DNA from: Fidelibacterota bacterium
GTDB lineage: Bacteria; Fidelibacterota; Marinisomatia; Marinisomatales; UBA1611
NCBI GenBank assembly: GCA_018658715.1
Contig: JABHUQ010000035.1
Coordinates: forward strand, 1-40,818
DNA: 40,818 nucleotides
Reading direction: 5' to 3'
Shown here: positions 7,087 through 40,584 of the stretch, piece by piece
How positions within the stretch are numbered: position 1 is the first letter of the stretch
Layout: each line of letters begins with the position of its first letter
Program-made: the position numbers and the translations under genes
Notes under the pieces: generated by a model
The model's database searches: none
What the model was told of the DNA's origin: nothing
What the model saw: the letters and a program-made list of their open reading frames with translations, nothing else

Positions 7087-8556
7087 ATGACAATAACTAG
7101 ATACATTACAATTATTCTTTTATCTGTTTTTCTCTTTGCTCAAGACGGGACCATTCTTCCTGGGCAGAAATCAGCCATCCAATCCCTGTCTGCGACTGCA
7201 GGATTCACTGATGCTGATCTGAGTGCATACTTAGTTCAGATGTACGGAAAGTCCATTGACAATCTTAGTCAAGCAGATGGAGTTGGTGTTATCAAGGCTT
7301 TTCAGGCTGGGACTGTCGTAAAACAACAGTCTGTCGAAACAAAAATAGAATTGCGGGAGGCGGACTTGCTTGAGCCGGGCATGAAGAAGCTTTTTCATTT
7401 TCTTGATGGTACTGTTCGGCAGGGCGAAATACTATCTATTGAAGGTGGTGATATTGTTCTAAAAACGGGTAGCGGTACTTTTAATATCCCTTCTGATCAA
7501 TTTCTATCAGAGACCGCAGAAATCACAAACAAAAAAGGCGAGTTGTTTAAGGGGGTTGTACTTGGTGAAACATCTGAAGAATTTATACTTCGCACAACCT
7601 TTGGTGACGCTGTCATTCAAAAACGAGATATTCGTACCATGAAGCGGTACCATGGTGGCGTCTTAGATCGTCAATACGAGGATCTGAAAAAATTCTATCA
7701 AGGCGAGGCACAACTTATAGGGGTTTTTATGGATCCAACCGCGTTCCCTTTAGCCGGAAACACATTTTATTTAAGTGGCCTGTCTGTGGGGTATGGTCTT
7801 ACTGACAGGTTTATGATAACAACAAAATTTGGGTCAAATTTCAGCGGTGATTTAAACTTTCATCCTCGAATGCGGTTTTATCATCGCAAATCGGCAGAAA
7901 AAGAAGTTGCCGCAACCTGGGGAATTGGCTTACACCGCGCCGCCAGTATTGAAAGTGTTGTTGGAAGGTATTCCCACGCCGTCAATATTACCACGGGAGA
8001 TAGTACAAAATCTTTAAACCAACTCGATGATATTCGCGTAGCTGATTTGGTGAAAGAGAGCCAGGATGATTTTCTCTACGCTGAAGCGTATCTTGTTTTT
8101 TCATCTCGTAGGGTGAACCCAACCGGTCGGGGGAAAGTGGGTTGGTCTGCTGGGGTTAAGGCCAACAACGCCTTTATCAACCGCGACGATTGGCTTAAGT
8201 CTAGTTTTTCCGCTGAACTTGATACAGCAGCGCAGGTAAGCTGGAGCAACGATAAAAAGTATTCGGTTCCGTTTAGGTGTTGGTTGTCTCTAGAATACGA
8301 CCTAAGGAAAAATTTGAAATTTGTAGGTTCAGCTTGGATTGATAACGGTTACAAAACAATGGATCTTGCAGCTACTGTGGATGATTATTTTGGTGATGAT
8401 GGTTCTGACAGCTTTTCTCTAGATTCACCAAGGGGAGACGTCAGTATGATCGATTTTGATTTTGGTCTTCTCTATGCTGTAAATGAGTCTTTCCGCATAG
8501 GGATACACTTCCAGCAACCCTACATTGATTTTTATTGGGAATTTTTTGAATTCTAA
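7087..8556 (+). CDS. Exported protein with helical, Sm-like and barrel-like parts
   Basis: A 489-aa protein of unknown function. The signal peptide is MTITRYITIILLSVFLFA with Gln predicted at mature +1. Residues about 25-77 (QSLSATAGFTDADLSAYL...MYGKSIDNLSQADGVGVIKAF) resemble a small three-helix domain. Residues about 103-185 hold two short beta-barrel-like repeats of the form G-x-hydrophobic-LKT-x-x-G-x-x-IP. From about 215 to the end, alternating hydrophobic and aromatic segments (FYLSGLSVGYGLTDRFMITTKFG) and a terminal Phe suggest an outer-membrane beta barrel. AAGGAC lies 8 bases before the ATG. It is first in the plus-strand envelope cluster and divergent from the HTH-PAS regulator. Confidence 0.7.
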   Translation: MTITRYITIILLSVFLFAQDGTILPGQKSAIQSLSATAGFTDADLSAYLVQMYGKSIDNLSQADGVGVIKAFQAGTVVKQQSVETKIELREADLLEPGMKKLFHFLDGTVRQGEILSIEGGDIVLKTGSGTFNIPSDQFLSETAEITNKKGELFKGVVLGETSEEFILRTTFGDAVIQKRDIRTMKRYHGGVLDRQYEDLKKFYQGEAQLIGVFMDPTAFPLAGNTFYLSGLSVGYGLTDRFMITTKFGSNFSGDLNFHPRMRFYHRKSAEKEVAATWGIGLHRAASIESVVGRYSHAVNITTGDSTKSLNQLDDIRVADLVKESQDDFLYAEAYLVFSSRRVNPTGRGKVGWSAGVKANNAFINRDDWLKSSFSAELDTAAQVSWSNDKKYSVPFRCWLSLEYDLRKNLKFVGSAWIDNGYKTMDLAATVDDYFGDDGSDSFSLDSPRGDVSMIDFDFGLLYAVNESFRIGIHFQQPYIDFYWEFFEF

Positions 8557-9450: not shown

Positions 9451-9478
9451 TCTTGTGGTGGGCCAACGAAATTCTATC

Positions 9479-22593: not shown

Positions 22594-24735
22594 TTATTTG
22601 ATGATTAAAAATTTGCCTTCTTTCACCTGACCTGAAGATTTATCTTCAACGGAAAATAAATATAATCCTGTTGCAGCTGCCTGGTCATGCATGGTTATTA
22701 AATCCCAAGCATGTTCTCCTCCGGACATTTGCGGTGATTTTTGATTATCGATATTTTGGACATCTGCTCCTTGATAGCTTTCATCATGTTCTATAATGTT
22801 AACTAAGTCTCCGGCAAGCGTGAAAATACGAATTTCTGCGGTTTGTGGGAGGTTTTGAAACCAAATTATTTTATTCCTACTACCAAACCCATCCCAATGG
22901 GCTTGACCTTTATATGGATTTGGATAAACAGTTGGTGTGCTACTCCAATTCCCATGTTGAGATGCGGGTTGTCCTGGATAAACATATGTACGATTAGAAT
23001 AAATTGAACTTTCTAAACTTTCAAGATTTGCGTCCGGATCACCTTGGTCATAAGCAGTAATTGCATAATAATTAATCCAACCATTATTTACACCATCATT
23101 GATGAATTTATAATGATAATAATTCCCATCAATCAAAATGCTATCAGGATTTCCATATTCATCAGTAATACGGATTAAATCAAAATCGGTATTATACCCA
23201 ATATTATTCATAGAGTCGAATTCTCCAAGTAATGTGAATTCCCCTAATAATTCATTTTGCGTTTTACGAGCACCATAAATACGATATCCTTCGAAATCTT
23301 TTTCTTGGCTGATTGGATCTTTAAAATATTCTGCATTATTCTCCCAGTAAATAGTAACTCTTTGCGACTCCACCATTAATTTCATATTTGGGGATGGAGG
23401 GGGAGCAGGTAAAATATATCGGTCTATTACATTATTATTATTTGTGTCTTCGTCTTCATCAAGGATGTTGTTTCTATTTTTATCTTCTCCATCAAATGCT
23501 TTTTGAGCCCAATCATAATTCACAATCAAATTTTCTCTTCTTTCCGGAGAGTCTCCAGAGCCATTTCCCCATAAACCACACACAACAGTAAATGAAATAT
23601 TACAACTTTCGCCTGGTGGCAATATCCATGATGATGAATCTGCATTGCTAGGCAAACTACCAAGAGGGCCTGCAGATAATAAAAATAACCAACTATCTGG
23701 AGATGCAGGGTAACCATCTTCTGTATAATCTGGTGCTCCTGGGCCTTTTTGTACATTTGATTTTAGTTTTGTATATCTCTCAAAATCATCAAGTGGCATA
23801 CCAAAACTTGGATAATCTGCATTATTTGAATTTGTCCATGCCCATTGTTGGTAGTATGATTTTAAATAGGGTTGAGGCACATTCCCACCCAATACAGAAA
23901 CTCCAAAATAAGACTCTGCCCATCCATCATCTCCGTCAGCATCATATTGGTACCCAATGTCACGCGAAAAGCCTGCAGCATCATTAGTTTGGTCATATCC
24001 ATCTAAATTATCTGTCCAAGTAAAACCACCACCCGGTTCATATTTATTTGTATAATTAAAATTAGCTATAGATGCATCTGCCCAAATACCCGAATAAATA
24101 TTCTTTATTGTATCTTCGCTCATATTTGTAATTGTATAATTTAAAATAGTAAACGCATCGGCATAAGAATAATTCCACGCATATGCTTTTAATTCGACAT
24201 CTATTCCTAATGGATTATGATTAATAATATTTTGGCCATCACTTGGGGAATCACCATAATCTGAAAAGGTGGCTACCATATCTTGATGCGATACAGCATC
24301 TGGAGAATAATATTGTGCCATTGAATCTTGTGTTGTAGAAGCTATGGATGACTTTATATCAATCGATGATTTTGAAAAAAACTCAAACCCTTCTTCCCCG
24401 GAATCAAATACACCATCTACAATTGCAGTTGATACGCGTCTTTGACCATTTACGAGTCCGCCAATCCATAATCCCGCATAAGAAAAATGTTCAATTTGCT
24501 CTCTTAATACTTCTGTGTTTTGCTTATAAACACATGATGGATTAATACTACCATCTTCCATACGATTCCAACCGTTTCCAAGAATCCCAAAATTGGTAAT
24601 TGTAAGACCTAATTGTCCAACGGAAGTATATTTATCAAATTCATCATTTACGCTTATCGCGCGTGAAAGTTGCCTGTCAGATTGGCCCACAGCGATAGAA
24701 ATAGTAAAAATAGATAGTAGTATAATATTATTCAT
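22594..24735 (-). CDS. Large secreted surface protein with sorting domain
   Basis: A 713-aa exported protein. The signal peptide MNNIILLSIFTISIAVG is followed by Gln18 at mature +1. The N-terminal two thirds (SVGQLGLTITNFGILGNGW, FSYAGLWIGGLVNGQRRVST, AYAWNYSYADAFTILNYTI) form a pattern common in secreted proteins of this bacterial group, with no assigned function. An acidic DKNRNNILDEDED segment near residue 415 looks like a calcium-binding loop pair. An FN3-like stretch follows (VESQRVTIYWENNAEYF, FEGYRIYGARKT). The C terminus, from VYPNPYKGQAHWDGFG to GKFLIIK, is a sorting-type domain. The start codon shares one base with the stop of the upstream nuclease gene (TAATG). Probable T9SS cargo. 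Confidence 0.75.
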   Translation of the reverse strand: MNNIILLSIFTISIAVGQSDRQLSRAISVNDEFDKYTSVGQLGLTITNFGILGNGWNRMEDGSINPSCVYKQNTEVLREQIEHFSYAGLWIGGLVNGQRRVSTAIVDGVFDSGEEGFEFFSKSSIDIKSSIASTTQDSMAQYYSPDAVSHQDMVATFSDYGDSPSDGQNIINHNPLGIDVELKAYAWNYSYADAFTILNYTITNMSEDTIKNIYSGIWADASIANFNYTNKYEPGGGFTWTDNLDGYDQTNDAAGFSRDIGYQYDADGDDGWAESYFGVSVLGGNVPQPYLKSYYQQWAWTNSNNADYPSFGMPLDDFERYTKLKSNVQKGPGAPDYTEDGYPASPDSWLFLLSAGPLGSLPSNADSSSWILPPGESCNISFTVVCGLWGNGSGDSPERRENLIVNYDWAQKAFDGEDKNRNNILDEDEDTNNNNVIDRYILPAPPPSPNMKLMVESQRVTIYWENNAEYFKDPISQEKDFEGYRIYGARKTQNELLGEFTLLGEFDSMNNIGYNTDFDLIRITDEYGNPDSILIDGNYYHYKFINDGVNNGWINYYAITAYDQGDPDANLESLESSIYSNRTYVYPGQPASQHGNWSSTPTVYPNPYKGQAHWDGFGSRNKIIWFQNLPQTAEIRIFTLAGDLVNIIEHDESYQGADVQNIDNQKSPQMSGGEHAWDLITMHDQAAATGLYLFSVEDKSSGQVKEGKFLIIK

Positions 24736-27462: not shown

Positions 27463-28335
27463 TCAATGAAGCAATGAAGAAACAAATCGAAATTTATATC
27501 CGCTTTTTTCCAATTCGGGGATGCGCTTTTTTAATACAGCTAATGTATTTTCCTTCACGTGACCAATTCCAATAGCTACACCATCTTTTTTTGCTGAATT
27601 TGCCAACTCATCTACTTGGCGATTAATATCATTTAAATTGTCACTATTATCTAAAAAGACTTTTCGCCTTGCGGTTGATACACCCAATAAAGACATTGTT
27701 TCTTCCGCAATCGTATTTTTCGTTGTTCTACTATCTAAAAAATATTTCGATTTATCTTTTAAAACATTTCCAACTGCTGTCATAACTCGCCGATCTTCTG
27801 TTGCTTTAGACCCTTGATGATTATTCATTCCAACAGCTTGCGGGATTTGTTTAAACGCATTATTTACACGAGAAGTGATTTCTTCATCTGATTGCGATGT
27901 CATTAAAATAAAATCTTCTTCACCTTTAGTAATAATGTGAGTTTCCATTGGCATATGAATTATAACTTCAAATCCAAACTTTTTAGCCTCACCTCCCATC
28001 AAACTACTATATTGGTGCCCCGGAATTACAGCATAAGTCATAGGTGTTTTGAACCCTAAGAATCCTTCAGATACAGCATCGTTTCGATAACCAAAATCAT
28101 CAATAACTAAACCAATTGTTCCTTGATACTTTACTTTCTTTGTTCGTTTTTTTACTGATTTTTTTTGTTTTTGTGATTTGATTTTTAATGCATCGTCAAG
28201 CTCTATGAGTATTTGTTCTTTTTCCTGTTCCAATTGATTAATTGTTTGATTTTTATTTTGCAGAATATTTAATAAAAATCCCGCTGAAAAAATAAGCGCA
28301 ACAATAATACCTAATTTGAAATCAAATTTGTTCAT
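27463..28335 (-). CDS. YibQ-like divergent polysaccharide deacetylase
   Basis: A 290-aa membrane-anchored protein. It has one N-terminal membrane helix (KLGIIVALIFSAGFLLNIL), a short coiled coil (about 25-55), a very basic KKRTKKVK linker, then a polysaccharide deacetylase-like TIM-barrel fold of the divergent (DUF610) type. Diagnostic motifs are GLVIDDFGYR (76-84), IIHMPME (125-131) and NNHQGS (171-176), which would supply Asp and His metal ligands. The family is usually found beside cell-wall hydrolases and its substrate is unsettled. It overlaps the PorQ-like gene by ATGA, so it is in the same operon, and probably faces the periplasm. Confidence 0.82.
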   Translation of the reverse strand: MNKFDFKLGIIVALIFSAGFLLNILQNKNQTINQLEQEKEQILIELDDALKIKSQKQKKSVKKRTKKVKYQGTIGLVIDDFGYRNDAVSEGFLGFKTPMTYAVIPGHQYSSLMGGEAKKFGFEVIIHMPMETHIITKGEEDFILMTSQSDEEITSRVNNAFKQIPQAVGMNNHQGSKATEDRRVMTAVGNVLKDKSKYFLDSRTTKNTIAEETMSLLGVSTARRKVFLDNSDNLNDINRQVDELANSAKKDGVAIGIGHVKENTLAVLKKRIPELEKSGYKFRFVSSLLH

Positions 28336-29195
28336 GGTAATAAAATATAAAAGTCGAGAATTTGTGGAGTGCCGATATTTTGAGAGCCTACTTGAATAGC
28401 ATATTGGATTCCATACAACCCTGATCGCATACCAATACCGCTTGAAAATGATTTTTCATTTTGAGATAATTTTACACTTGTTTGAAACGAAATATTTTTC
28501 CAACGAATTTCATTACCAATATTAAATAAAACTGATTCATGTATTAATGCATATTCTATATTGGAGAAAGCTGTATTAGAAAATGACCTAAAATTAGACT
28601 CCCAAGATAATCCGCCAAGAAATCGAATAGGTAGTGATGGTTCTTTTGATAAAAAGGTATTCATTTTACCAATATTCAATAAAGATAAACCAATTTTACC
28701 TTTTTTATTAATAGATCTCCAATAGCCAAAATCCATCGCGAAACCATTGGAGTTTTCCATATATAATGATATGTCAACCCATCGAACTGTTACGCCAAAA
28801 TGGTTCTCTTTTGATTGAAAAGAAATGGTCCCATCTAAAGATAACCCGCTGGCTGTATAAAATGCGATAGGGTCACTTTGTGGTTTATTTTCTCTTAACT
28901 CTAAATCATTAAGCCCTGAATAACGAAGGTTGAAGGATCGAGTAGTTTTCCCTTTTGAGTAAATAAAATTAATACTTGTTAGATCTAAATCTCCCAACCC
29001 GTTCCCATGAGAAAAATAAACTTCGGACCCAATTGGTTCTGCCTGTAATAAGGCTGGATTCCATAATCCATTTCTATTTAATAATGGATTCATTCCAAGC
29101 CCAAGATCTGAAGCAGTCATTGGAATGGATAAAAATTGTGTCCCCATACCAAATAGGTAGGATACAATAATCAGTATCTTAGAAATGAAACGCAT
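28332..29195 (-). CDS. PorQ-like outer-membrane barrel protein
   Basis: A 287-aa exported beta-strand-rich protein. After the signal sequence, QFLSIPMTASDLGLGMNPLLNRNGLWNPALL matches the PorQ pattern of FLxLPxSAR, ALGG, then NPALL. In Porphyromonas gingivalis PorQ is part of the PorU-PorV-PorQ-PorZ attachment complex on the outer membrane. Strand patterns such as TTRSFNLRYSGLNDLEL and SFSSGIGMRSGLYGIQYAIQ continue to the end. The gene starts 17 bases inside the PorV-like gene and ends in an ATGA overlap with the deacetylase gene. The PorQ assignment rests on the N-terminal motif and on context. Confidence 0.62.
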   Translation of the reverse strand: MRFISKILIIVSYLFGMGTQFLSIPMTASDLGLGMNPLLNRNGLWNPALLQAEPIGSEVYFSHGNGLGDLDLTSINFIYSKGKTTRSFNLRYSGLNDLELRENKPQSDPIAFYTASGLSLDGTISFQSKENHFGVTVRWVDISLYMENSNGFAMDFGYWRSINKKGKIGLSLLNIGKMNTFLSKEPSLPIRFLGGLSWESNFRSFSNTAFSNIEYALIHESVLFNIGNEIRWKNISFQTSVKLSQNEKSFSSGIGMRSGLYGIQYAIQVGSQNIGTPQILDFYILLP

Positions 29196-30111
29196 AAGAC
29201 ATTATATGAGCCATTTGTCCGGCTATATCCATCGAGAATGCATAATCTAACCGAGAATCATGAGATTTCAATAATTTATAATCCATACCAATACCAGCAG
29301 AAAAGCGATTATTGCCATAACCACCTCTTACATAATATTGATCCATTAATACATACTCTAAACCAGCCCTAGGTAAAATATCCATAAATGTTTGATGGTT
29401 TGTAATAAATCCAAGATCACCTACAAATAAGAAATTATTAAATATATATTTTGTGCCAATTCTATATAATGTTGGAAACTCATCTTTATAGGGGCGCCCT
29501 TCATCATAAATATCACCTGTATTCCATTGGTAATTAGAACTCATATCTTGAATCATTAAACCAATGGTTTGACCTTTACCAGATTTTATTAAAATACCAA
29601 TATCAAATCCTAATCCAGAACCTCTTAGGTCTCCATCATTCGTTGGGAGTTGATTGCGTAATATTTTAAAATTTGCCCCAACACTTAACCACGGTTTAAT
29701 TCTTTGAGAAAAAGTAATGAAAAAGGCATCTTCACTTGTATTCATTATTTCAGTTTTTTCACCTGATGAACTTCTCCCCTGAATGTCTGTGACTCCTGCA
29801 CTAAGCCATGCAACACCAACACCAGCTGTCGGAGGTAAAGGAGCACTAAAACTTGAGACTGCTAATCGACGATCTAAAGATAATGTTTGATAATTGAATC
29901 CCACTTGCTTGTCAGTGTTAAAAGCAGCCCATGCCGGATTATGGTACGCAGAAAAACCATGATCCATTTCTGCCGTAAATGCGCTTCCCATTGATGTAGA
30001 TCTTGCAGATGTTCCAATCCGTAAAAATCCACCAGATAGTCCAGCATAATTCTCAGCAACAATTGATGTTACAAATAGGAATAAAATTAAAATATGTTTT
30101 ATTGATTTCAT
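29179..30111 (-). CDS. porV: PorV-like outer-membrane barrel protein
   Basis: A 310-aa outer-membrane barrel of the PorV/PorQ family. PorV shuttles type IX cargo from the SprA translocon to the attachment complex. The start is placed at the ATG at 30109-30111 rather than 27 bases upstream, because this gives a clean signal peptide (MKSIKHILILFLFVTSIVA, then ENYAG) and a TAATG overlap with the upstream stop. The family signature is LRIGTSARSTSMGSAFTA followed by AYHNPAWAAF. Later strands include WLSVGANFKILRNQL, GSGLGFDIGIL and YYVRGGYGNNRFSAGIGMDY, ending in a terminal Phe. The exact subfamily (PorV against a PorV paralogue) cannot be settled by eye. Confidence 0.78.
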   Translation of the reverse strand: MKSIKHILILFLFVTSIVAENYAGLSGGFLRIGTSARSTSMGSAFTAEMDHGFSAYHNPAWAAFNTDKQVGFNYQTLSLDRRLAVSSFSAPLPPTAGVGVAWLSAGVTDIQGRSSSGEKTEIMNTSEDAFFITFSQRIKPWLSVGANFKILRNQLPTNDGDLRGSGLGFDIGILIKSGKGQTIGLMIQDMSSNYQWNTGDIYDEGRPYKDEFPTLYRIGTKYIFNNFLFVGDLGFITNHQTFMDILPRAGLEYVLMDQYYVRGGYGNNRFSAGIGMDYKLLKSHDSRLDYAFSMDIAGQMAHIMSYAFHF

Positions 30112-31757
30112 TATTTCACCAATATCAGTTTGGTCCAATGATTTTTAGGTGAACTATTTTGAGATGCATAATTTAAATTAATAAAATAAACACCATTAGA
30201 TACAACACCGCCTGCTTCATCTCTTCCATTCCATTTAATAGCTCCAACATCTGTCCGCTTATCGTGTGAATAGGAATAAACTTTTTCCATCGCAAAATTG
30301 TATACAGTGACTTGAATAATATTATTCACAACTGTCCCTAAATGGAATCGAACATATCCATCATTCTCCAGCTGATTGTGATTGTATGGTGAAAATGGAT
30401 TTGGATAGGCATACACTTCAGATGAATCATATTCTGCGCGATGAATAACCCACGATTCTCCGTGTAAATCCCCTGTATAGGCAACACCATCAGGCGTCCC
30501 AACCCACAACATCGTTGAATCTCTAAGGTCTAAAGCAGATGTGTATACTATATTGGACAAAATTTGCTCCATTGATAAATATGTTTTATCAATAGCGGGA
30601 GAAAAGCACGCCCAATTTTCACCATCTAAACTTTTCCATAATCCATTGGATGTAGAAGCAAGAACAAGTGAATCTTGAGCCGTTACATTATAAACACGTT
30701 CTCCAAGTAAAACTGCGTTCCACGTTTCACCACCATCACGCGTATAACTTAATCCTCTTTGTTCGCCCGGATCTTCTGCATTTACAGTTGAAGCCCATAC
30801 TGTAACCATTCCATTCCAATATTGTTTAGCAATACTTACAACAAAGTTACCTGATAGACCATCTTCAGGATAAGAATAATGATCCCAATTCACACATCGA
30901 TAACTCACATTATCAACAACTTCATCAATAATAATTCCACGATTAATTCCATTAGCTGTCCCAGCCCAAATAGTATCTCCATATGCCAAAACAGAAAAAG
31001 CTTTATGGTTATGATTCCCCCCATCAAGAGGATCCCTCGGGTTTAAATAATAATTTCTTAAAATTGATTTCCCAGCAACAACATCAAAGGAGTCGCTCTC
31101 GCAAGTTGATAAATAAACTTGATTGTCTTGAGGTAATGGGACATTTGCCCAAACTTTATTAGTTAGATCATATCTCCTAAGACCGCCTGCCCAACTTGTA
31201 ATCCATACATATTTATTTCCATTATTGGAGTGAAATGAGGCATCATAAGTCACATTTGCTTGCGGAACAGTAACGGGTAATTGATAAAAATACCCTTGAC
31301 CAAAAGGAACCAATGTATCAGCTTGTTGATCAACAGGTTGAGATAAATATTCCCACTGAATTCCATTTGTATCTTGAGCATTTGATGAAAATACTAACCC
31401 ACCACCCATTTGAATAGTACCATCATCCGTGGCAATTGCTGCAAATAAACTATCGCCCATTACACTAATTGCTGAAATACCGCCACTTGGGATAGTTAGT
31501 GTAGTTGCGCCGTTTGAAAGAGTATCTGTTGCCGATTGATAGGTATACATTGAATGGCCATCAAATATAGCTAGACCGCGCCCTGTACCAAGCCACACCA
31601 ATGAATCACCTTGAAATTTAATTTCAGCTACAACATTACTTGTTAAGCCATCTTGGGTAGATGAATCATTTTGAGCTGTTCTTAAGACAAATCGATTTGG
31701 GATATCTCTCTGTCCAAACAGGATTGCAAATAGAAAAAGGAAGATATATTTTCTCAT
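30111..31757 (-). CDS. Beta-propeller protein with sorting-type C terminus (PorZ-like)
   Basis: A 548-aa exported protein. The signal peptide MRKYIFLFLFAILFG is followed by Gln16 at mature +1. Repeated propeller-blade strings follow: GLTSNVVAEIKFQGDSLVWLGTG, GNKYVWITSWAGGLRRYD, GDTIWAGTANGINRG, GLSGNFVVSIAKQYWNG and LWVGTPDGVAYTG. They resemble the regulator-propeller (Reg_prop) and BNR types. The C-terminal ~95 residues (YPNPFSPYN to LILVK) are a sorting-type domain. P. gingivalis PorZ has this layout with two propellers and works with PorU, PorV and PorQ. Here there is one propeller set, lying directly before PorV- and PorQ-like genes. It overlaps its upstream neighbour by ATGA. Confidence 0.7.
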   Translation of the reverse strand: MRKYIFLFLFAILFGQRDIPNRFVLRTAQNDSSTQDGLTSNVVAEIKFQGDSLVWLGTGRGLAIFDGHSMYTYQSATDTLSNGATTLTIPSGGISAISVMGDSLFAAIATDDGTIQMGGGLVFSSNAQDTNGIQWEYLSQPVDQQADTLVPFGQGYFYQLPVTVPQANVTYDASFHSNNGNKYVWITSWAGGLRRYDLTNKVWANVPLPQDNQVYLSTCESDSFDVVAGKSILRNYYLNPRDPLDGGNHNHKAFSVLAYGDTIWAGTANGINRGIIIDEVVDNVSYRCVNWDHYSYPEDGLSGNFVVSIAKQYWNGMVTVWASTVNAEDPGEQRGLSYTRDGGETWNAVLLGERVYNVTAQDSLVLASTSNGLWKSLDGENWACFSPAIDKTYLSMEQILSNIVYTSALDLRDSTMLWVGTPDGVAYTGDLHGESWVIHRAEYDSSEVYAYPNPFSPYNHNQLENDGYVRFHLGTVVNNIIQVTVYNFAMEKVYSYSHDKRTDVGAIKWNGRDEAGGVVSNGVYFINLNYASQNSSPKNHWTKLILVK

Positions 31758-32596
31758 TCTATCACCTCTAATACTTCAGTTTTTGTTATAAACAGTCCAT
31801 CCCAATCTTTCACCCAAAATGTAGCTTCATATGTACCAATAGGATTATCATATCCAATAGTAATTAATCTAGAATAAGTGCCATCACTTAATTGAGAATC
31901 CCAAATTGACGGATTATCTGTATCGTTAGGATATTTTACACCATCATCATAAAGTAGAATAGGATCACCATTGTTTGCATAATTTCCATCGGGTTTTTTA
32001 AATAATAAAAAACATGATTGAATATCATTTAATCCATTTGGGTCGTGGGCAGTTACAAAAATGCTATCAATATGATATAAATTTTGTTCGGTTGGGCGGA
32101 GCATAGTATCTGGGAAAGAAATTGAAATAATTGCTGGCATGAGATTGCCCAACTCAGAAGAATCAGAAATAGATACCCATTCGCTCCCATATTTAGCGAT
32201 AATTTTATAAAAAACTAACCCAGAATCCGATTGGGTAATTACATTGGATATTACCATTGAATCATTTGCGGTTTTTATTCCATAAATACCATCATATGAT
32301 AATATATCGCCATGCAATCCTTCATCATTAAGTGCTATTGAATCTGCGGCTCTTGATGAATCTGTCCCAAACCATATGACATTCACACTTGATAAAGAAT
32401 TTCCACCATAACTTTCAGTAATGGTGGATGAAAAATATAATTTTTCAATATCTTGATGGAAAGTAAACTGAACATTTGAAATAGGGTCACTATCTTCAAT
32501 TATCGGATCCGTTCCTGGACACCCAATAAAAAGAAGAAGCATTGTTAAAATTATCAGAACTCGCATAGCCCTGAATTTAAGGGCATGGCCCATCAT
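31754..32596 (-). CDS. Lipoprotein with immunoglobulin-like repeats
   Basis: A 280-aa lipoprotein. The lipobox LFIGC gives lipidated Cys26 counting from the first Met. Met11 (MRVLIILTMLLLFIGC) may be the true start, but the ATGA overlap with the upstream M28 gene favours the first. Two Ig-like segments end in similar acidic turns: LNDEGLHGDILSYDGIYG and YDDGVKYPNDTDN...LSDGTYSRLI. These are typical of surface or periplasmic beta-sandwich proteins. No enzymatic motif is seen. Its position between the glutaminyl-cyclase-like and propeller genes suggests an accessory role in the export cluster, but this is inference. Confidence 0.68.
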   Translation of the reverse strand: MMGHALKFRAMRVLIILTMLLLFIGCPGTDPIIEDSDPISNVQFTFHQDIEKLYFSSTITESYGGNSLSSVNVIWFGTDSSRAADSIALNDEGLHGDILSYDGIYGIKTANDSMVISNVITQSDSGLVFYKIIAKYGSEWVSISDSSELGNLMPAIISISFPDTMLRPTEQNLYHIDSIFVTAHDPNGLNDIQSCFLLFKKPDGNYANNGDPILLYDDGVKYPNDTDNPSIWDSQLSDGTYSRLITIGYDNPIGTYEATFWVKDWDGLFITKTEVLEVIE

Positions 32597-33531
32597 GAAC
32601 CACCTTCGGTTTCTTCAGAAAAACTATATATATAATCTGTTAACAATATTCCAACTTGCCCAAGACTTTCTGCTGAACAATTTTCAGGTAAATCAGAATG
32701 TGTGTGCCAATAGTTTGCGTATGAATTAGGATATTTAAAATCAATAATGTCGATGGATGGAATTCCAGCATGTTGATATAATGGAACATGGTCATCATAA
32801 ATTGCATATCCGATTTTAGATTGAAATGCAGAAAGATCTAATTCGTGAGCTCTATTCCAAAGCCATTTTACCAATTCTCGATTTTGATTATAAGAATATC
32901 GTTCCATTGGCAATGTTAATTGAGCATCCCCAACCATATCTACAATAATAGCTTCATCTAGTTTTGGGATAGGAAGGTGTTTTGCAAAATAGTGTGCTCC
33001 TTGCCCAAAGGATTCATTGATACCGGGCACTCCTAAATCTTCACCATCAAGAAATACAATATTAACACCCACGGGAGGTGCATTTTTACTCATTACTTGC
33101 ATCAATTCTAATAAAACTGCAACTCCGCTTGCGCCATCATTTGCGCCAACAATAGGTGTCCTTCTTTTAAATTTATCTAAATCTTCTTCTGCCCACGGGC
33201 GCGTGTCCCAATGAGCTCCTATCATAATTTGAACATCAGATTCTGTATTAAATCGAGCAATAATGTTTACTAAATCATATGTTTGATGATCTTTTTGTTC
33301 CGTATATGTAAAAGGCTGTAATACAACATCATCGGCATGATTTTCAGATTCATCAATTATAAACTGCTTACAAGCTTCATACCCATCTGACCCGGGATTT
33401 CTTGGACCAAAATCACATTGTTTAACTAAATATTCAAAAGATCTATCTTGATCAAAGGTCGGACCATTTCCACCACAAGTCTGAATGGAACAACTAAAAA
33501 TAATTAAAATTAAAAGTATGTTTAATTTCAT
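32593..33531 (-). CDS. Glutaminyl-peptide cyclotransferase-like M28 enzyme
   Basis: A 312-aa zinc enzyme expected to convert N-terminal Gln of exported proteins to pyroglutamate. The zinc-site pattern fits glutaminyl cyclases with a single metal: VGANDGASG with Asp132, FLDGEDLG with Glu164, and YWHTHSD with His276. The signature GAHWDTRPWAE (105-115) is also typical of the QC branch rather than M28 aminopeptidases. The N terminus MKLNILLILIIFSC suggests a lipoprotein with lipidated Cys14; a second Cys19 is possible. It starts 4 bases after the sprA stop and overlaps the next gene by ATGA. M28 aminopeptidase activity is the main alternative. Confidence 0.82.
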   Translation of the reverse strand: MKLNILLILIIFSCSIQTCGGNGPTFDQDRSFEYLVKQCDFGPRNPGSDGYEACKQFIIDESENHADDVVLQPFTYTEQKDHQTYDLVNIIARFNTESDVQIMIGAHWDTRPWAEEDLDKFKRRTPIVGANDGASGVAVLLELMQVMSKNAPPVGVNIVFLDGEDLGVPGINESFGQGAHYFAKHLPIPKLDEAIIVDMVGDAQLTLPMERYSYNQNRELVKWLWNRAHELDLSAFQSKIGYAIYDDHVPLYQHAGIPSIDIIDFKYPNSYANYWHTHSDLPENCSAESLGQVGILLTDYIYSFSEETEGGS

Positions 33532-33535
33532 TTTA

Positions 33536-36500
33536 TTATCCTGAAATACTCATATTAACATCAAACCCAAAATCGCGATCTATCTTTTTACCGGTGGTTT
33601 TATTTTCATTCTCTCTATACTCATAAATAATACTTCCACTTACCTTTGTGCTAAATTGATATGAAGCTCTAATGCCCGCCTTCCAACTGGAGCTAAAAGC
33701 ACCCTCTTCTAGGTTGATTTTATCTCCCGATTTAAATTCTTTACTATTATTCATATCTAAATTCAGAGTGAAATTCATTGTGTTTTTCAAATTTAAATCA
33801 CCATAATATGGAACAGGAATTCGCATACCTCCACGATGGCTGTATGTGGTAGAAGATGTAACACTCCAATTCTGTCGAATCGTTAACCCTTCCGGTTTTT
33901 CTTCCAGTGACTTATCTCTATTATGCCTAATATTCATAGATATACCTTTTTTCAAGGTCATATTCATCCCAATTAAAGGTGAAAATCCTGTCTGAATTTT
34001 TGAATTTCTTTCATATTCTTTATAATCATCCGCAAAGGTACCGAACTGAAAGAAATTCATATCTGAAGGTAATACATTTTCAAACTGCCAAGAGCGTGTT
34101 TCTTTTCCTGAATAATTATGTTCTAATGATGCTGATTTGGTGAGCCAATTAAATATGGGGAATTTTTCTATACCAGAAATTCTAAAACTCCAACCAACAA
34201 AAGGGAGTCCATTTTCTAGGCGATCACCATAAGCAAAATAGTCTCTTGTCATAGAACGTGTTTCAACTCCAGATCCCGCTCTCGTTGTTGTCATATTCTG
34301 GCCGAAATTCATATTAATGGTTAAATTATTAGTTACCTTTAATCCTGACCGAATAGATCCATCCACTTTATGGTCCCAATTACCCAAATTGGTTCCAACT
34401 TCTGATGATTGTTCAAGGTCATGATTGGGGAGCCACCCAAACTTATAACCGGTTGGAACTTCTCCTAAAATTTTATTAGCAGAACGATTTAACGTTTCTG
34501 AATAACTCAAACTAATTGGATTAACTTTTCCAAATAAACCATGAATAAAGGTAAGTGGTTTGTTTTCTTTTCTTTCTTTTTTAGGCTCTTCCTTTTTTTC
34601 GGGTGTTTTAGCCCTAGAACTAGTTCTTCGCCTTCCCGCTGATCTTTTTGGTTTCTTTTTGGATGGCGGTTTATATAAAACTTCAAAAAGCTGAACAGGG
34701 GTTAATGTTATATTTGATGAAAACCTTAATCCAGTTGAAATGTCTTGGCCTTCTAATGATAAATTATCGTTCCATCTATAATTGGCTGAATAATTAAAGC
34801 TTGGCCTTAACCAAGAAAAAAGGGTTGGGGAAAAGGAAGTATTCATATTTTCTGTAATACTGGTAACATCGCCGGGGTCTAAGGCTTTTACAGCTGAATA
34901 TATATATCCCCTATAATCGTTCAATTTACTTTTACCCGTCCAGCCATATTTTGTTGAGAGGCTATTAGTCAATTTATAATCTAGATTCATTGTTCGATCT
35001 AATCCAAAACTATAAGCATCATCCGAACGCACACCCCTTCTTGTTTCATTCCATGATAGTTTTTCTGAAAAACTCATATTCGTCTTAAAACTAGATGGTG
35101 TATAATACAATTGAAAATCACTGATCTTTTCACCAATTATTGGTGTTTTTTCCATCCATTTAAATGGGCGAATATAATTATCTCTTCCAAAGGGAATATT
35201 ATACCCAATATTACCAGAATATGTTTCGCTTTGCTTATCTAAATATGTAATGTCAGATGACTGGGATTTTGCTGCATTAAATTTCCCTTGTAATTGATCA
35301 ATTGTATATTTTACTAATTTATTATCTGATTTATTCGTTTTTGATAATGAAACTCCTAACGACATGGATTCTGATTCTGAGATGATAGAATCGGGTGTGC
35401 TATTTTCTCCAACCATAATATCTTCACCGGGGAAATATTTTGGTCGGTCTACACTTTTACTTACTGATGCATTTAGAGGTAATGCGAATCCCCAAGATTT
35501 TGGTAAAAACCGGTGAAGATCTAATCGCCCAGAAAAAGTTAAATCTTCAGCATTATTTGTACTCGAACTTAAACGTTCTTGAAGGCGATGATAGTCAGCA
35601 TCTTGACGACTATAAGTCATGGTGGCGCTAGCCAAATCAGCTAATTTCAAAGATGACTGAACGCGCATTGCAACACCTCTGTCTTTTTTAACACCACTTA
35701 AGCGCAATTCGTCTAGCCAAACTTCACCTGATATATCATATTCTGTTTTATTTTTAATCCCTACTGTAAAATATTGAAGTCTGTTGAGGGCTGGTTTACC
35801 TTTAATTTCCACTTTTTTGATTGGTAGACCATTCGCATCAGTAAATACATAACGTTTTACATCGGCAGAATCCAAGAATATGTCTGTCTCGCTAAATTTT
35901 TCAATTGTGGTAGAATCTTGTTTTTTTAATGTAGAAAGCCAATCTAAGTCTAACTTAACCTCATTACGTTTTAAATCTTCATCCCAATCCTTAAAAACAG
36001 GTTGTGTAATCTCGTAATAATCATCCCCAAGACCAAATTTGATAAAAAAGTCGATATCACTTGTTTCTGAATATTGATTCCATCCAATTCCAGGATTGCC
36101 ATATAGGTAAAGCTTTAAGAAGTCATAAGAAAGAAAGCTTCGTTTTTGACTATCATTTAAATTGTACAATACTTTTGTTGCTGCACCGCTATTGCGTGCT
36201 GGTAATTGATCAAATTTTAAAACTAATGATTGTTCTTTAGATCTTATTTCGTTGATACGATCATATTCCCCTTTTACACCAACGGGTGGTACATAATCTG
36301 CATTATCTTCTGTATTAATAACAGTAATAGCAAACACACTGTCCGCATTTTCTACTGAATACCCAGTTGAATCTGTTGCTACACCCAATTCTCGCCAATC
36401 ATTCCCAACCATTTCAATTTTGGCAATTTCTATTGCGTGTAATTCTGAATCAAAATCTGAAACAGAAATACGCATATTTCGAATATCATTCCATTCAATG

Positions 36501-39500
36501 TTTTTTACTTTTCTAAAATGAGATAAAGGAACTCGAAATAATTTCCAACCTGTAAATTGGCCATCTTTTACTGTTTCCCCTGCAAGATAAGTTGTATCTG
36601 TTAAACCGAAGGTAGTTGAAAAATAATCATTTGTTTTGTCGATTAATTTCAATCCATCTAAATCTTCTGTATCTGGATATTTCCCACCTTCTTGAATACG
36701 TGAACCCGTTCCATTCCCTTCTGAACCATTTACTTTTGAATAATCTGTGCTACCTTCTTCATAATGCCAATTATCTCCATTCGGATCAGACGGGTCTACA
36801 TCCGATGCACTATTAATAAATACAGTATCATTTATGGATAAATAATAATCATATGATTCTGCTTCAAGGCATCCACCCCAGCCATCTTCTATTTCATCAA
36901 AACAACCATCTAAGCCGGTATCTTCTTCTTCTTCTAAAAAACCATTTCCAAATTGAAGTCCTGCTTCTGCTATATCCTCCGTATTTAGAACTCCGTCACC
37001 ATCTCTATCTTCACTTATTTTTCCTAAATCAATTGTTATATCACCCGATTCTCCACGAAGCCATATTTCAAAAAATTTACTTTGTGTTTGATCATAATCT
37101 CCTGAATAAAGAGAAGTCGTAATCCCCGACCAAATTGAATCTTGAGAAATACCATCTTGGTGAGGGCGCTTTTGATATCGCAAAACCAATACATCTGTTG
37201 TTTCATTGCCCGCTCGGATCGATGTGGATTGATTCGGCCAAATATCGCGAGTTCTATATTGAATATATGGATTATACCAATAGAAGTGTGCTCGATTTCG
37301 TTGCCCAAATTGACGAGACCAAGTACTATCTTGAAAAATAAGTGGAGCAGAAGATTCTTTCCAAAATCGCCTTTGAATAGATGGGGATGTGGTACGTTTT
37401 GATCCTTCAAAATCATCAATGAAGGCTACGCCATTTTCATCTCCCGTTTCAGGATTACTAATTGAATTAGGATTGGGCATCACCTGAGCAATTTCTCCCT
37501 CTACGCTAAAGTTTGAAATTTTCTCCGTTTCAATTAATGGTAGTTTGTCTAAAAATCGTGTTAATCCGTTTAAGTCTTTTTCAAACCGACCATTCATATC
37601 CCAAATAAAGTTACGCGTAGGCTCATAACCCACTTCTACTTTCTCATTAATAATCGACTGATTATAATAAAGGGCTGTGGCTCCAATAAAAGATTTTTCG
37701 CCCAAATCCATTTGTGCGCGTGTTCCCACAATCGTCTTTTTATCAAATGATACAATTTCATGTCTATCGTATAAAATCTTCAATTTTGCATTTGGATTAT
37801 CTGCCGCATCTCCGAGTAAAAATATAGTTCCAGAAAAATAATCTATTTGATAATCAATACCTCGTTTTAATGTAACGCCATTTTGAATAACCTCTTCACT
37901 CCCATCCACAAGCATAAATCCTAAATTTATTGTAGAACTTTGGTTGCTATATTTTGCTTCTAATGCAAATCGGTGGTCTTGATTAATGAGGTTTCGATCG
38001 GTTGTAGTATAAGCTGCTCCTGACCCTAAATGAGATTGTAGTGATGGCATATTATTCCCACCATCTAATGAATCAGAAGATACAAATGGATGTAAAGCTG
38101 GGAATAATATTTCACCATCTCTCAGATTAACAATATTGCCATTTTCAACATCAATTAACTCATCTGAAACCCGTTCCTGAGAATCATTCAAGCTATCCAA
38201 TCCAAATAAAGTGATGTATGGTATACTCGTATTAGGATCTCGATCACTTTCAGGTGTAACACGCTTATTAATTATTCTAAATTCAAATCCTTCAGGCTTT
38301 ATATTGGTTGTGCCAAGATAATATACATTTTTAAACATTAAATCCCATGTTGGATTATTAGGGTGAGGAGACCTTGGTTTTAACATTTGAAGCGATAATT
38401 CCGTTTGTGTTGAATCCGCTCCTCGGCCAACAACCAGGACTGTATCCCCATTTTGGTCAGCTAATACATAAGTACAACCCAGAATTTCTGTGGTAAGCAT
38501 TTCTCGAAGTTGAATATATCCCAAATCATTATTAATGAAATATTGTACATCTCGTTCCATTCGAATAAAACTACCTTCTTCATTATATTCAATATTAGTT
38601 GAATCTGAAATATTTGTTGCATCCACATATGCTGTTCCAACATTAGCACCGGGATCATTCGTTTGATCCAATTTATACAATTCAAAGTTTTTAACAGTAA
38701 CACTACCTTCACCACCATTTATCCGATGAAGCCCATTAAACAATGGATAAAAAGATGGAATTGAAACTGGGCGGTATTGCGTTCCATCAAATGCAACTGT
38801 ATCAGTACCATTCCTAAACCAAGGATGAATAAAGAAATACCTGTTTTTGATATAATCTGTATCTTTTATTTGTTGAGAGTTTGATTGAGACCCACCTTCA
38901 TATTCTAATCGCTCTTTTTTAGTTCTTTCAATAGATGCAATCGTTGTTATATCAATAGGTCCCAGTTTTGAAATGGCTTTTAATCCGAACAACCCCTGAT
39001 TCTTACCTGAGAAGGTCACATATTTTGTGGATGGAAGAGAGAGTGAAATATTTCCAGCTTCAATTTTTTGAACAATATCATCTTCTGCACCTTCATACGA
39101 AATACGAATATTATTTTCCCAATCAAAATCACGTTCTGAATCTTGATCCATGGATACTGTAATTCGATCTCCAATTTTCCCCTGGACATTTAAATTTTGT
39201 TTTTGATCAAATTCTAAATGCGTGTTTTGAGTTTGATTCAAACTTGAGCGAACCAATTCTTGATCTTGAAATACCATTTTACCTGATACGCTTACATTAC
39301 CGCTTAATCTGAGTGAGGCACGACCTAGTGCACCCAAATCAACGCCAACAACTTCAATCATTTGTCCACGTTTTTTGCGATCATCCCCTTTTTTATCATC
39401 GTGGATAGATTCTATAAATTTGATATACCAGTTTCGGTAAAACATTTTTTCTAAATACCATTCAACTGACATAGTTTGCGGGAGGCGAACTTGTTTGCCA

Positions 39501-39820
39501 TCTACATATTCCGAAACAGTAATTGTATCCCAATTACGATCCAACTCAACACTTAAAGCATATTCATCATATTTAATATTGAGTATTCCTAGTGGAGATG
39601 TTAATGAATCATATGCAAGGGCATAGAAAGGGAAAACTTTGGGAAATGGGTTTGACACATATGGGGAGCTAGGGACAAATCGCGCTAAATGTGCGCTGTA
39701 ATCATCAGAGCGTGTGGAATCTAAAGATTGAGCAATGAGCCCATTTAGACATAAAAAACCCGCAAATCCTAATTGAAGGATCCGTCGGGTAAGTAATATT
39801 TTTTTGTTTATTATTTTCAA
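33536..39820 (-). CDS. sprA: SprA-type type IX secretion translocon protein
   Basis: A 2094-aa outer-membrane protein forming the giant barrel through which type IX cargo passes. The signal peptide ends LNGLIA with Gln31 at mature +1. Family text includes FFIHPWFRNGTD, FYPLFNGLHRINGGEGSVTV, long periplasmic-plug-like beta regions, and an acidic segment at about 935-1045 (DRDGDGVLNTEDI, DPNGDNWHYEEGSTDYSKVNG) typical of SprA. The C-terminal half alternates strands of a barrel. A very basic linker lies at about 1710-1750 (KKKPKRSAGRRRTSSRAK). The length is a little below Flavobacterium SprA (about 2400). The start appears to be TTG at 39818-39820 with no nearby ribosome site; no in-frame ATG is available. 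It heads the export operon after rdgB. Confidence 0.88.
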   Translation of the reverse strand: MKIINKKILLTRRILQLGFAGFLCLNGLIAQSLDSTRSDDYSAHLARFVPSSPYVSNPFPKVFPFYALAYDSLTSPLGILNIKYDEYALSVELDRNWDTITVSEYVDGKQVRLPQTMSVEWYLEKMFYRNWYIKFIESIHDDKKGDDRKKRGQMIEVVGVDLGALGRASLRLSGNVSVSGKMVFQDQELVRSSLNQTQNTHLEFDQKQNLNVQGKIGDRITVSMDQDSERDFDWENNIRISYEGAEDDIVQKIEAGNISLSLPSTKYVTFSGKNQGLFGLKAISKLGPIDITTIASIERTKKERLEYEGGSQSNSQQIKDTDYIKNRYFFIHPWFRNGTDTVAFDGTQYRPVSIPSFYPLFNGLHRINGGEGSVTVKNFELYKLDQTNDPGANVGTAYVDATNISDSTNIEYNEEGSFIRMERDVQYFINNDLGYIQLREMLTTEILGCTYVLADQNGDTVLVVGRGADSTQTELSLQMLKPRSPHPNNPTWDLMFKNVYYLGTTNIKPEGFEFRIINKRVTPESDRDPNTSIPYITLFGLDSLNDSQERVSDELIDVENGNIVNLRDGEILFPALHPFVSSDSLDGGNNMPSLQSHLGSGAAYTTTDRNLINQDHRFALEAKYSNQSSTINLGFMLVDGSEEVIQNGVTLKRGIDYQIDYFSGTIFLLGDAADNPNAKLKILYDRHEIVSFDKKTIVGTRAQMDLGEKSFIGATALYYNQSIINEKVEVGYEPTRNFIWDMNGRFEKDLNGLTRFLDKLPLIETEKISNFSVEGEIAQVMPNPNSISNPETGDENGVAFIDDFEGSKRTTSPSIQRRFWKESSAPLIFQDSTWSRQFGQRNRAHFYWYNPYIQYRTRDIWPNQSTSIRAGNETTDVLVLRYQKRPHQDGISQDSIWSGITTSLYSGDYDQTQSKFFEIWLRGESGDITIDLGKISEDRDGDGVLNTEDIAEAGLQFGNGFLEEEEDTGLDGCFDEIEDGWGGCLEAESYDYYLSINDTVFINSASDVDPSDPNGDNWHYEEGSTDYSKVNGSEGNGTGSRIQEGGKYPDTEDLDGLKLIDKTNDYFSTTFGLTDTTYLAGETVKDGQFTGWKLFRVPLSHFRKVKNIEWNDIRNMRISVSDFDSELHAIEIAKIEMVGNDWRELGVATDSTGYSVENADSVFAITVINTEDNADYVPPVGVKGEYDRINEIRSKEQSLVLKFDQLPARNSGAATKVLYNLNDSQKRSFLSYDFLKLYLYGNPGIGWNQYSETSDIDFFIKFGLGDDYYEITQPVFKDWDEDLKRNEVKLDLDWLSTLKKQDSTTIEKFSETDIFLDSADVKRYVFTDANGLPIKKVEIKGKPALNRLQYFTVGIKNKTEYDISGEVWLDELRLSGVKKDRGVAMRVQSSLKLADLASATMTYSRQDADYHRLQERLSSSTNNAEDLTFSGRLDLHRFLPKSWGFALPLNASVSKSVDRPKYFPGEDIMVGENSTPDSIISESESMSLGVSLSKTNKSDNKLVKYTIDQLQGKFNAAKSQSSDITYLDKQSETYSGNIGYNIPFGRDNYIRPFKWMEKTPIIGEKISDFQLYYTPSSFKTNMSFSEKLSWNETRRGVRSDDAYSFGLDRTMNLDYKLTNSLSTKYGWTGKSKLNDYRGYIYSAVKALDPGDVTSITENMNTSFSPTLFSWLRPSFNYSANYRWNDNLSLEGQDISTGLRFSSNITLTPVQLFEVLYKPPSKKKPKRSAGRRRTSSRAKTPEKKEEPKKERKENKPLTFIHGLFGKVNPISLSYSETLNRSANKILGEVPTGYKFGWLPNHDLEQSSEVGTNLGNWDHKVDGSIRSGLKVTNNLTINMNFGQNMTTTRAGSGVETRSMTRDYFAYGDRLENGLPFVGWSFRISGIEKFPIFNWLTKSASLEHNYSGKETRSWQFENVLPSDMNFFQFGTFADDYKEYERNSKIQTGFSPLIGMNMTLKKGISMNIRHNRDKSLEEKPEGLTIRQNWSVTSSTTYSHRGGMRIPVPYYGDLNLKNTMNFTLNLDMNNSKEFKSGDKINLEEGAFSSSWKAGIRASYQFSTKVSGSIIYEYRENENKTTGKKIDRDFGFDVNMSISG

Positions 39821-39870: not shown

Positions 39871-40476
39871 TTAATCTTCAAATTCATTTTTTAAAATGGT
39901 TATTATTTTTTTTACCGCTCTTCCGCGGTGACTAATTTCATTTTTTTCTTCACTAGACATTTCAGCAAAAGTTTTATCTAACCCTGGAACATAAAAAATG
40001 GGATCATATCCAAATCCGTTTTTCCCTACAGGAGAATGTGTAATATTTCCTTGTATGAATCCATCAACCCATTGTTCCTTCTCAGATGTAACAAACGCAA
40101 TAACTGTTCTAAAGGTAGCTACACGTTTTTTACTTTCAACTCCATCTAATTCAAAAAGCATTTTATTAACATTATCAGCAACTGTTGCATTTTCACCCGC
40201 ATAACGAGCGGAATAAACACCAGGAGCTCCATTTAATGCTTCCACTTCTAAACCTGTATCGTCAGCAATGGCTGGAAACCCTGTTATATTATGCACAGTT
40301 TTTGCTTTTAAAAATGCATTTTCAAGCAATGTTTTTCCTGTTTCTTCAATTTCGCCCACCTGAGGAAAATCATCTAATGTTTTAATGATTAAACCCAATC
40401 CACCCAAGGCCGAAGACAGCTCTTCGACTTTATGACTATTATGAGTCGCCAAAATAAGTGTTTTCTCGTGTGACAT
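39871..40476 (-). CDS. rdgB: XTP/dITP (Ham1/RdgB) nucleoside triphosphate pyrophosphatase
   Basis: A 201-aa house-cleaning enzyme that hydrolyses dITP, XTP and ITP to monophosphates to keep damaged purines out of DNA. Motifs: LILATHNSHKVEEL at the start, ETGKTLLENAFLKA, PAIADDTGLEVEALNGAPGVYSARYAG, GFGYDPIFYVP and EKNEISHRGRA. The start at the ATG 40474-40476 matches where the family begins. A longer form from 40527 adds 17 residues (MLESPYVSRQFSLSDPR) that do not look like this family. Neither start has a well-spaced ribosome site; GAGG directly abuts the shorter one. It is upstream of sprA with a 50-base gap and may head the operon. Confidence 0.93.
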   Translation of the reverse strand: MSHEKTLILATHNSHKVEELSSALGGLGLIIKTLDDFPQVGEIEETGKTLLENAFLKAKTVHNITGFPAIADDTGLEVEALNGAPGVYSARYAGENATVADNVNKMLFELDGVESKKRVATFRTVIAFVTSEKEQWVDGFIQGNITHSPVGKNGFGYDPIFYVPGLDKTFAEMSSEEKNEISHRGRAVKKIITILKNEFED

Positions 40477-40584
40477 CCTCGGATCACTAAGGGAAAATTG
40501 CCGGGAAACATAGGGTGATTCTAACATTAGAACAAGGAGAATTCACATTAAACTCATTTCTTATACTTTAAGATAAGTTTGCGT

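What the first reader, a model, noticed from the sequence alone, without database searches (positions are those of the whole stretch)
32593..39820. Glutaminyl cyclase next to sprA, with Gln at +1 of many exported proteins
Seven exported proteins in this window are predicted to begin with Gln after signal peptidase I cleavage: SprA (LIA|QSL), the propeller (LFG|QRD), two surface proteins (AVG|QSD, SFG|QTT), the 7087 barrel (LFA|QDG), the 8571 protein (LQA|QPG) and the 9091 ORF (IVS|QNF). A glutaminyl-cyclase-like M28 enzyme starts 4 bases after sprA. A 'Q-rule' with N-terminal pyroglutamate is known in Bacteroidetes. Here it appears in a probably different phylum, with the cyclase wired into the type IX operon. 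Exceptions in the window (FA|GDL, FA|SSA, LA|VDD, VA|ENY) show it is not universal.
Basis: partly seen in the sequence, partly recalled or inferred. Interest (0 to 1): 0.66.

Follow-up and report, generated by a model that had tools for sequence, protein, structure and literature searches.

The report
Glutaminyl cyclase beside sprA, Gln-first exports
In the uncultured marine bacterial phylum Neomarinimicrobiota (SAR406), many exported proteins start with glutamine once their signal peptide is removed, and the enzyme predicted to seal that glutamine into a protective ring sits directly behind the gene for the type IX secretion channel in every genome where the two could be compared, so a trait named after Bacteroidetes reaches well beyond them.

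Summary
The finding holds. The window is a contig of a Candidatus Neomarinimicrobiota genome, not Bacteroidota. The M28 gene (32593-33531, -) starts 4 bases after sprA, and by sequence, predicted fold and active-site residues it groups with bacteroidal type II glutaminyl cyclases (QCs), not two-zinc aminopeptidases. In 114 of 114 Neomarinimicrobiota genomes with both genes on one contig, sprA lies directly upstream of QC on the same strand. The pair also occurs in Calditrichota, KSB1, Zixibacteria, Eisenbacteria and Krumholzibacteria. Using a signal-peptide scan blind to glutamine, Gln at +1 is enriched 4- to 12-fold and is the most favoured residue in the single-genome samples (43% in own genome plus genus, 57% in an order relative, against 11% in E. 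coli and 4% in Zixibacteria after model fitting). It is present in 25 of 25 orthologues of the window's propeller protein. Two limits: high Gln values outside Bacteroidetes (Ignavibacterium, Chloroherpeton) were already published, and Gln is not confined to type IX cargo. Zixibacteria keep the sprA-QC pair without a Gln bias, so the gene link and the Gln rule can come apart. Cyclisation itself is inferred; no pyroglutamate has been measured.

The parts
32593..33531 (-). Type II (M28-fold) glutaminyl cyclase, predicted membrane-anchored lipoprotein (Cys19, IQTC|GG)
   Evidence: PF04389 106 bits; best PDB sequence and fold matches are bacteroidal QCs (6qro, 6qql, 3tc8, 4fuu; TM 0.84-0.93); D132-G133, E164-D165, D198, W275-H276 conserved
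33536..39820 (-). sprA/sov, T9SS outer-membrane translocon; itself LIA|Q
   Evidence: TIGR04189 763 bits, cut-off 200; PF14349 105 bits
31754..32596 (-). g280: conserved predicted lipoprotein (LFIGC) between QC and propeller, overlapping the QC stop by 4 bases; function unknown
   Evidence: syntenic in most Neomarinimicrobiota loci; no Pfam or NCBIfam match
30111..31757 (-). PorZ-like beta-propeller with T9SS-type C-terminus; LFG|Q
   Evidence: C-terminal matches to PorU/PorZ models, below their cut-offs; Gln at the cleavage site in 25 of 25 orthologues
29179..30138 (-). PorV/PorQ family outer-membrane protein (VA|E, an exception to the Gln rule)
   Evidence: NF033709 102.7 bits, cut-off 90
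28332..29195 (-). second PorQ-like beta-barrel
   Evidence: NF033711 34 bits, below cut-off
39871..40527 (-). HAM1/RdgB nucleotidase, conserved upstream neighbour of sprA
   Evidence: PF01725 222 bits; synteny
17281..22575 (-). T9SS cargo surface protein with Por_Secre_tail; SFG|Q
   Evidence: PF18962 36.8 bits; N-terminus
22594..24735 (-). exported surface protein; AVG|Q (n-region without K/R)
   Evidence: sequence; predictor
7087..8556 (+). exported protein; LFA|Q
   Evidence: predictor

Best explanation
The window carries the phylum's version of a general periplasmic N-terminal capping pathway. Exported proteins pass through Sec; signal peptidase I cuts after a small residue and in about half of its substrates exposes Gln; the QC encoded behind sprA, lipid-anchored or itself a Gln-first periplasmic protein, turns that Gln into pyroglutamate. 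The cap most likely protects the N-termini of outer-membrane, periplasmic and type IX-secreted proteins from aminopeptidases. The sprA-QC-PorZ-like-PorV order probably keeps cyclase supply in step with the T9SS export load; it is not a sorting signal. Shown: phylum, gene order, enzyme family, Gln enrichment and its conservation. Inferred: catalysis, pyroglutamate, protection, co-transcription.
For: Phylum from named relatives. QC in 145/149 phylum genomes and SprA in 147/149; same strand with sprA directly upstream in 114/114 with both on one contig. HAM1-sprA-QC order in deep families, with propeller and PorV following in most. QC identity by sequence, AF2 model pLDDT 90 with top hits among TfQC, PgQC, BtQC and a Parabacteroides homologue, QC-type residues in sampled relatives while the own genome's other M28 protein has aminopeptidase-type residues. 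No plant-type QC (PF05096) in the own genome, so this is the likely sole cyclase. Gln at +1: own+genus 21/66 (p=5e-13), Neomarinimicrobiota 71/244 against 5-8% at +2 to +7 (p=3e-43); fitting gives Q=0.43 (own+genus), 0.57 (G036), 0.33 (a Bacteroides MAG), 0.11 (E. coli), 0.04 (Zixibacteria), whatever the starting residue. Gln in 25/25 propeller orthologues with varying flanks. QCs that lack a lipobox mostly have Gln at +1 themselves (about 10 of 13, read by eye). The genome has about 77 CTD proteins above cut-off and three C25 peptidases. Protection and essentiality are known for P. gingivalis QC (PMC10653852).
Against: No activity or N-terminal proteomics. The signal-peptide predictor is home-made, with visible false positives that dilute the Gln fraction; 43-57% is below the Bacteroidetes mean of 71% from SignalP. 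In the own genome alone the blind first-choice value is only 21%. Zixibacteria have the sprA-QC pair and intact active-site residues but 1/24 Gln at +1. The E. coli contrast on first-choice counts alone is not significant (p=0.08-0.11, small sample), though its observed/expected ratio is 1.0. Pooled Neomarinimicrobiota loci contain orthologues and are not independent.
Confidence: 0.8

Rival explanations
1. The sprA-linked cyclase is a dedicated part of the T9SS: it caps cargo or the translocon subunits (SprA, propeller, PorV) for translocation or surface attachment, and the wider Gln bias is a by-product.
For: Adjacency conserved in 114/114 Neomarinimicrobiota and in several further phyla, including Zixibacteria that lack a general Gln bias; linked QCs are spread over the QC tree rather than forming one clade; propeller Gln invariant in 25/25.
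Against: Gln-first proteins in the sample are not mainly T9SS cargo. QC genes of this family occur in Armatimonadota and Bacillota genomes without SprA. In the Bacteroidota, Ignavibacteria, Cloacimonadota, Fibrobacterota and Poribacteria loci the genes are not adjacent. In P. gingivalis pyroglutamate does not act as a generic sorting signal (PMC5837995).
Confidence: 0.15
2. The M28 protein is a periplasmic aminopeptidase that trims exported proteins; the Gln bias is unrelated.
For: The M28 family is mostly aminopeptidases; weak PRK10199 aminopeptidase match.
Against: PDB ranking, fold ranking and the D-G, E-D and W-H residues all fall on the QC side; the own genome's other M28 matches Vibrio-type aminopeptidase with D-N/E-E residues.
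Confidence: 0.04
3. The Gln excess is an artefact of signal-peptide prediction or composition.
For: No standard predictor was available and false positives are visible in the lists.
Against: The same script finds A-first sites in E. coli (OmpA, OmpC correct) and G-first in Zixibacteria; Gln peaks at +1 only; the fit converges to Gln from any seed; 25/25 orthologue conservation.
Confidence: 0.03

Closest known systems
Bacteroidetes Q-rule (Bochtler et al. 2018, PMC5837995; Szczesniak et al. 2023, PMC10653852)
   Same: Gln at +1 is the dominant residue of SPI substrates; periplasmic, often lipid-anchored animal-type QC; not restricted to T9SS cargo
   Different: Different phylum; QC directly downstream of sprA (not so in the Bacteroidota loci seen here); Gln fraction about 43-57% by our scan versus 71% mean; pyroglutamate not measured
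PgQC / TfQC / BtQC type II glutaminyl cyclases (PMC7948796; PDB 6qql, 6qro, 4fuu)
   Same: Fold (TM up to 0.93), Zn ligands Asp-Asp-His, Asp-Gly after the first ligand, Trp before the His, lipoprotein signal
   Different: 31-34% identity; Tyr271 where PgQC has Phe294; activity untested
T9SS core (SprA/Sov, PorV, CTD cargo)
   Same: TIGR04189 SprA, PorV/PorQ family, Por_Secre_tail cargo, C25 peptidases
   Different: Operon layout HAM1-sprA-QC-lipoprotein-propeller-PorV is characteristic of Neomarinimicrobiota
High-Q species outside Bacteroidetes (Ignavibacterium album 77%, Chloroherpeton 55%; PMC5837995)
   Same: Gln-first SPI substrates outside Bacteroidetes
   Different: There isolated outliers with 'no obvious pattern'; here Gln enrichment recurs in several families of one phylum and is tied to a conserved gene pair

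Membership tests
Bacterial type II glutaminyl cyclase | Single-zinc ligand set Asp149/Asp183/His299 (PgQC numbering) | tested here: met
   D132, D165, H276; invariant in alignment A1 and in the cross-phylum set, residues from PMC7948796. That only one zinc binds was not measured.
Bacterial type II glutaminyl cyclase | Asp-Gly after the first ligand and Trp before the His ligand, unlike two-zinc aminopeptidases | tested here: met
   D132-G133, W275-H276; own-genome aminopeptidase-like M28 shows D-N and E-E
Bacterial type II glutaminyl cyclase | Catalytic Glu and Asp (HsQC E201, D248) | tested here: met
   E164, D198 aligned and invariant
Bacterial type II glutaminyl cyclase | QC fold closer to QCs than to aminopeptidases | tested here: met
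   all top 50 Foldseek hits are QCs or their structural-genomics homologues
Bacterial type II glutaminyl cyclase | N-terminal lipid anchor | tested here: inconclusive
   Cys19 aligned with clear lipoboxes of relatives, but own lipobox (I-Q-T-C) is unusual; other families of the phylum have an SPI signal with Gln at +1 instead
Bacterial type II glutaminyl cyclase | Cyclises N-terminal Gln in vitro | not testable with these tools
   needs enzyme assay
Q-rule | Gln at +1 strongly enriched and most frequent in SPI substrates | tested here: met
   O/E 4.0-11.8, top residue in own genome, genus and order genomes
Q-rule | Gln in the majority (>48%) of SPI substrates, as in Bacteroidetes | tested here: inconclusive
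   43% own+genus, 57% G036 by a home-made predictor; a Bacteroides MAG scores 33% with the same script, so values are probably underestimates
Q-rule | Pyroglutamate at mature N-termini | not testable with these tools
   needs mass spectrometry
Type IX secretion system | SprA translocon, PorV-family protein, CTD cargo | tested here: met
   TIGR04189 763 bits, NF033709 103 bits, 80 PF18962 matches in the genome

The most novel reading that the evidence does not exclude
The sprA-QC pair is an ancient functional unit of the FCB superphylum: the cyclase first served the T9SS translocon and its cargo (as still in Zixibacteria, which keep the pair without a general Gln bias), and the proteome-wide Gln rule of Bacteroidetes, Ignavibacteria, Calditrichota and Neomarinimicrobiota grew out of it.
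Probability: 0.2. Interest if true: 0.72.

Novelty: new variant of a known kind. Interest (0 to 1): 0.56.

Why it matters
The Q-rule is described as exclusive to Bacteroidetes and its link to T9SS as a phylogenetic co-occurrence without a mechanism. Here Gln-first export is found across several families of an uncultured marine phylum, and the responsible type of enzyme is next to the T9SS translocon gene in at least six phyla. That gives a direct handle on two open questions: when the rule arose, and whether QC and T9SS are functionally coupled. It also predicts pyroglutamate N-termini that can be sought in existing ocean metaproteomes, where standard searches may miss them.

Tried and rejected
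A first, stricter predictor missed most real signal peptides and over-called lipoproteins; it was loosened, then rebuilt with strict filters and a symmetric test over all residues. A Porphyromonadaceae positive control gave only 4 signal peptides and was dropped. Restriction of Gln to T9SS cargo was tested and rejected. An aminopeptidase identity was rejected. Literature searches for a published sprA-QC link found none in the held library; subscription journals are not covered.
Full report
What the window is. The window is contig C87 of a 2.46 Mb genome, 96% complete. A scan of named genomes with the M28 protein family of this contig returns Candidatus Neomarinimicrobiota (Marinimicrobia, SAR406) as nearest relatives (58% identity and falling), then KSB1, Ignavibacteria, Calditrichota, Zixibacteria, Poribacteria, Cloacimonadota, Bacteroidota and others. 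The phylum is therefore not Bacteroidota. The genome has a full-looking type IX system: SprA (TIGR04189, 763 bits), a PorV/PorQ-family protein (103 bits, cut-off 90), 80 matches to the Por secretion tail (77 marked above cut-off) and three C25 peptidases of the PorU/gingipain type.

The gene pair. sprA ends at 33536 and the M28 gene starts at 33531 on the same strand, a gap of 4 bases; the M28 stop overlaps the start of a conserved small lipoprotein gene. In 149 genomes of the phylum QC is found in 145 and SprA in 147. In the 114 genomes where one contig carries both listed matches, sprA is directly upstream of QC on the same strand in all 114; in 12 further genomes they lie on different contigs, many of them at contig ends. 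In 20 stretches from deep families the order HAM1-sprA-QC recurs, with the propeller and PorV following in most. Among named genomes of other phyla, a sprA homologue lies immediately upstream of QC in Calditrichota (L094, L106), KSB1 (L095), Zixibacteria (L104, L107, L130, L146), Krumholzibacteria (L118), Eisenbacteria (L124, L133) and three unplaced or oddly named records (L096, L109, L138); it does not in the Ignavibacteria, Bacteroidota, Cloacimonadota, Fibrobacterota, Poribacteria and Armatimonadota loci seen. In the QC tree the sprA-linked members are scattered, not one clade, which fits an old linkage kept in several lineages and lost in others, or repeated gain; the deep branches are weakly supported.

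The enzyme. phmmer ranks bacteroidal QCs first (3gux, 6qro, 3tc8, 4fuu, 6qql; E down to 1e-50) and Vibrio-type aminopeptidase last (E 9e-4). The AlphaFold2 model (pLDDT 90) matches bacteroidal QCs at TM-scores up to 0.93, then human and fly QCs; no aminopeptidase enters the best 50 other than QC structures deposited under that name. PMC7948796 gives the residues that separate bacteroidal QCs from two-zinc aminopeptidases: Asp instead of Glu as zinc ligand, Gly after the first Asp ligand, Trp before the His ligand. The window protein has D132-G133, E164-D165 and W275-H276, and nearly all relatives across phyla share them (Cloacimonadota have Asp-Ala). The genome's other M28 protein aligns with Vibrio aminopeptidase with Asp-Asn and Glu-Glu. 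No plant-type cyclase family (PF05096) was found in the own genome.

The Gln rule. No standard signal-peptide program was available, so I wrote a scan that uses the n-region charge, h-region hydrophobicity and the -3/-1 rule, ignores the +1 residue, and removes lipoproteins and membrane proteins. Q at +1 (first choice) is 7/34 in the own genome sample (p=1.2e-3), 14/32 in a same-genus genome (p=4e-12) and 8/22 in another genome of the order (p=9e-8), against 3-5% in the mature part; pooled Neomarinimicrobiota give 71/244 with 5-8% at +2 to +7 (p=3e-43). Pooled loci share orthologues, so the single-genome values carry the argument. When the +1 preference is learned from the data, starting from no preference or from any of seven residues, the result is the same: Q 0.43 in own+genus, 0.57 in G036, 0.42 in the phylum, 0.40 in Calditrichota, 0.39 in Ignavibacteria, 0.33 in a Bacteroides MAG, 0.11 in E. 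coli (top residue A, as expected), 0.04 in Zixibacteria (top residue G, 0.44). The Bacteroides value suggests that the script underestimates, since published Bacteroidetes values average 71%. Several group samples are small (9 to 24 signal peptides). Orthologue comparison does not depend on the predictor: in the propeller gene of 25 genomes of the order, mostly one family, Gln is present at the cleavage point in all 25 while neighbouring residues vary.

Not a T9SS signal. Gln-first proteins include cargo with the CTD motif and many without it. QC proteins of the phylum are either lipoproteins or, in about 10 of 13 non-lipoprotein cases read by eye, themselves Gln-first. P. gingivalis work found that pyroglutamate is not a generic sorting signal (PMC5837995) but stabilises exported proteins, and that QC is essential (PMC10653852). 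The most economical mechanism is thus general N-terminal capping of exported proteins, with the gene placed in the T9SS operon for matched expression. That last step, and cyclisation itself, are inferences.

What is new. The 2018 paper limits the rule to Bacteroidetes but lists outliers (Ignavibacterium album 77%, Chloroherpeton 55%) and argues against a mechanistic link to T9SS despite the co-occurrence; the 2023 paper repeats 'exclusively'. Neomarinimicrobiota are not mentioned in the main text of the 2018 paper. The phylum's Gln enrichment and the sprA-QC pair across phyla are, as far as the held literature shows, not described. Zixibacteria, with the pair but no Gln bias (1/24; Fisher p=0.007 against the phylum), indicate that linkage and rule are separable and leave open an older, T9SS-centred role for the cyclase.

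Noticed in passing
L104, L107, L130, L146, L167-L173: Zixibacteria have sprA-QC with intact QC residues but show Gly, not Gln, as the favoured residue after predicted signal peptides (9/24 first choice, 0.44 after fitting).
   Followed up: partly
L048, L053, L055-L059, L061, L062, L065: In several Neomarinimicrobiota families the QC lacks a lipobox and instead has its own SPI signal with Gln at +1, so the cyclase may be its own substrate.
   Followed up: partly
L095, L109, L112, L117, L123: QC is followed by a gene resembling ribosomal protein L11 methyltransferase (prmA) in KSB1, Ignavibacteria and a Bacteroidota-labelled locus; KSB1 and L109 carry sprA-QC-prmA, linking the two arrangements. 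The identity is from sequence inspection only.
   Followed up: partly
L088, L090, L092, L108: Cloacimonadota QCs have Asp-Ala instead of Asp-Gly after the first zinc ligand and nest among Neomarinimicrobiota QCs in the tree, which suggests transfer or shared ancestry.
   Followed up: no
window 31754-32596: Conserved small lipoprotein (g280) between QC and the propeller in most of the phylum, no family match; a candidate T9SS accessory protein.
   Followed up: partly
window 9455-10903 and 10918-12267: Tandem paralogous lipoproteins with identical signal peptides and repeated DPETG stretches.
   Followed up: no
L137, L139, L126, L129, L135, L145: QC-type M28 genes in Armatimonadota and Bacillota-labelled MAGs; no SprA was found in the three such genomes tested (those of L114, L126 and L137), so the enzyme also occurs apart from T9SS.
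   Followed up: no
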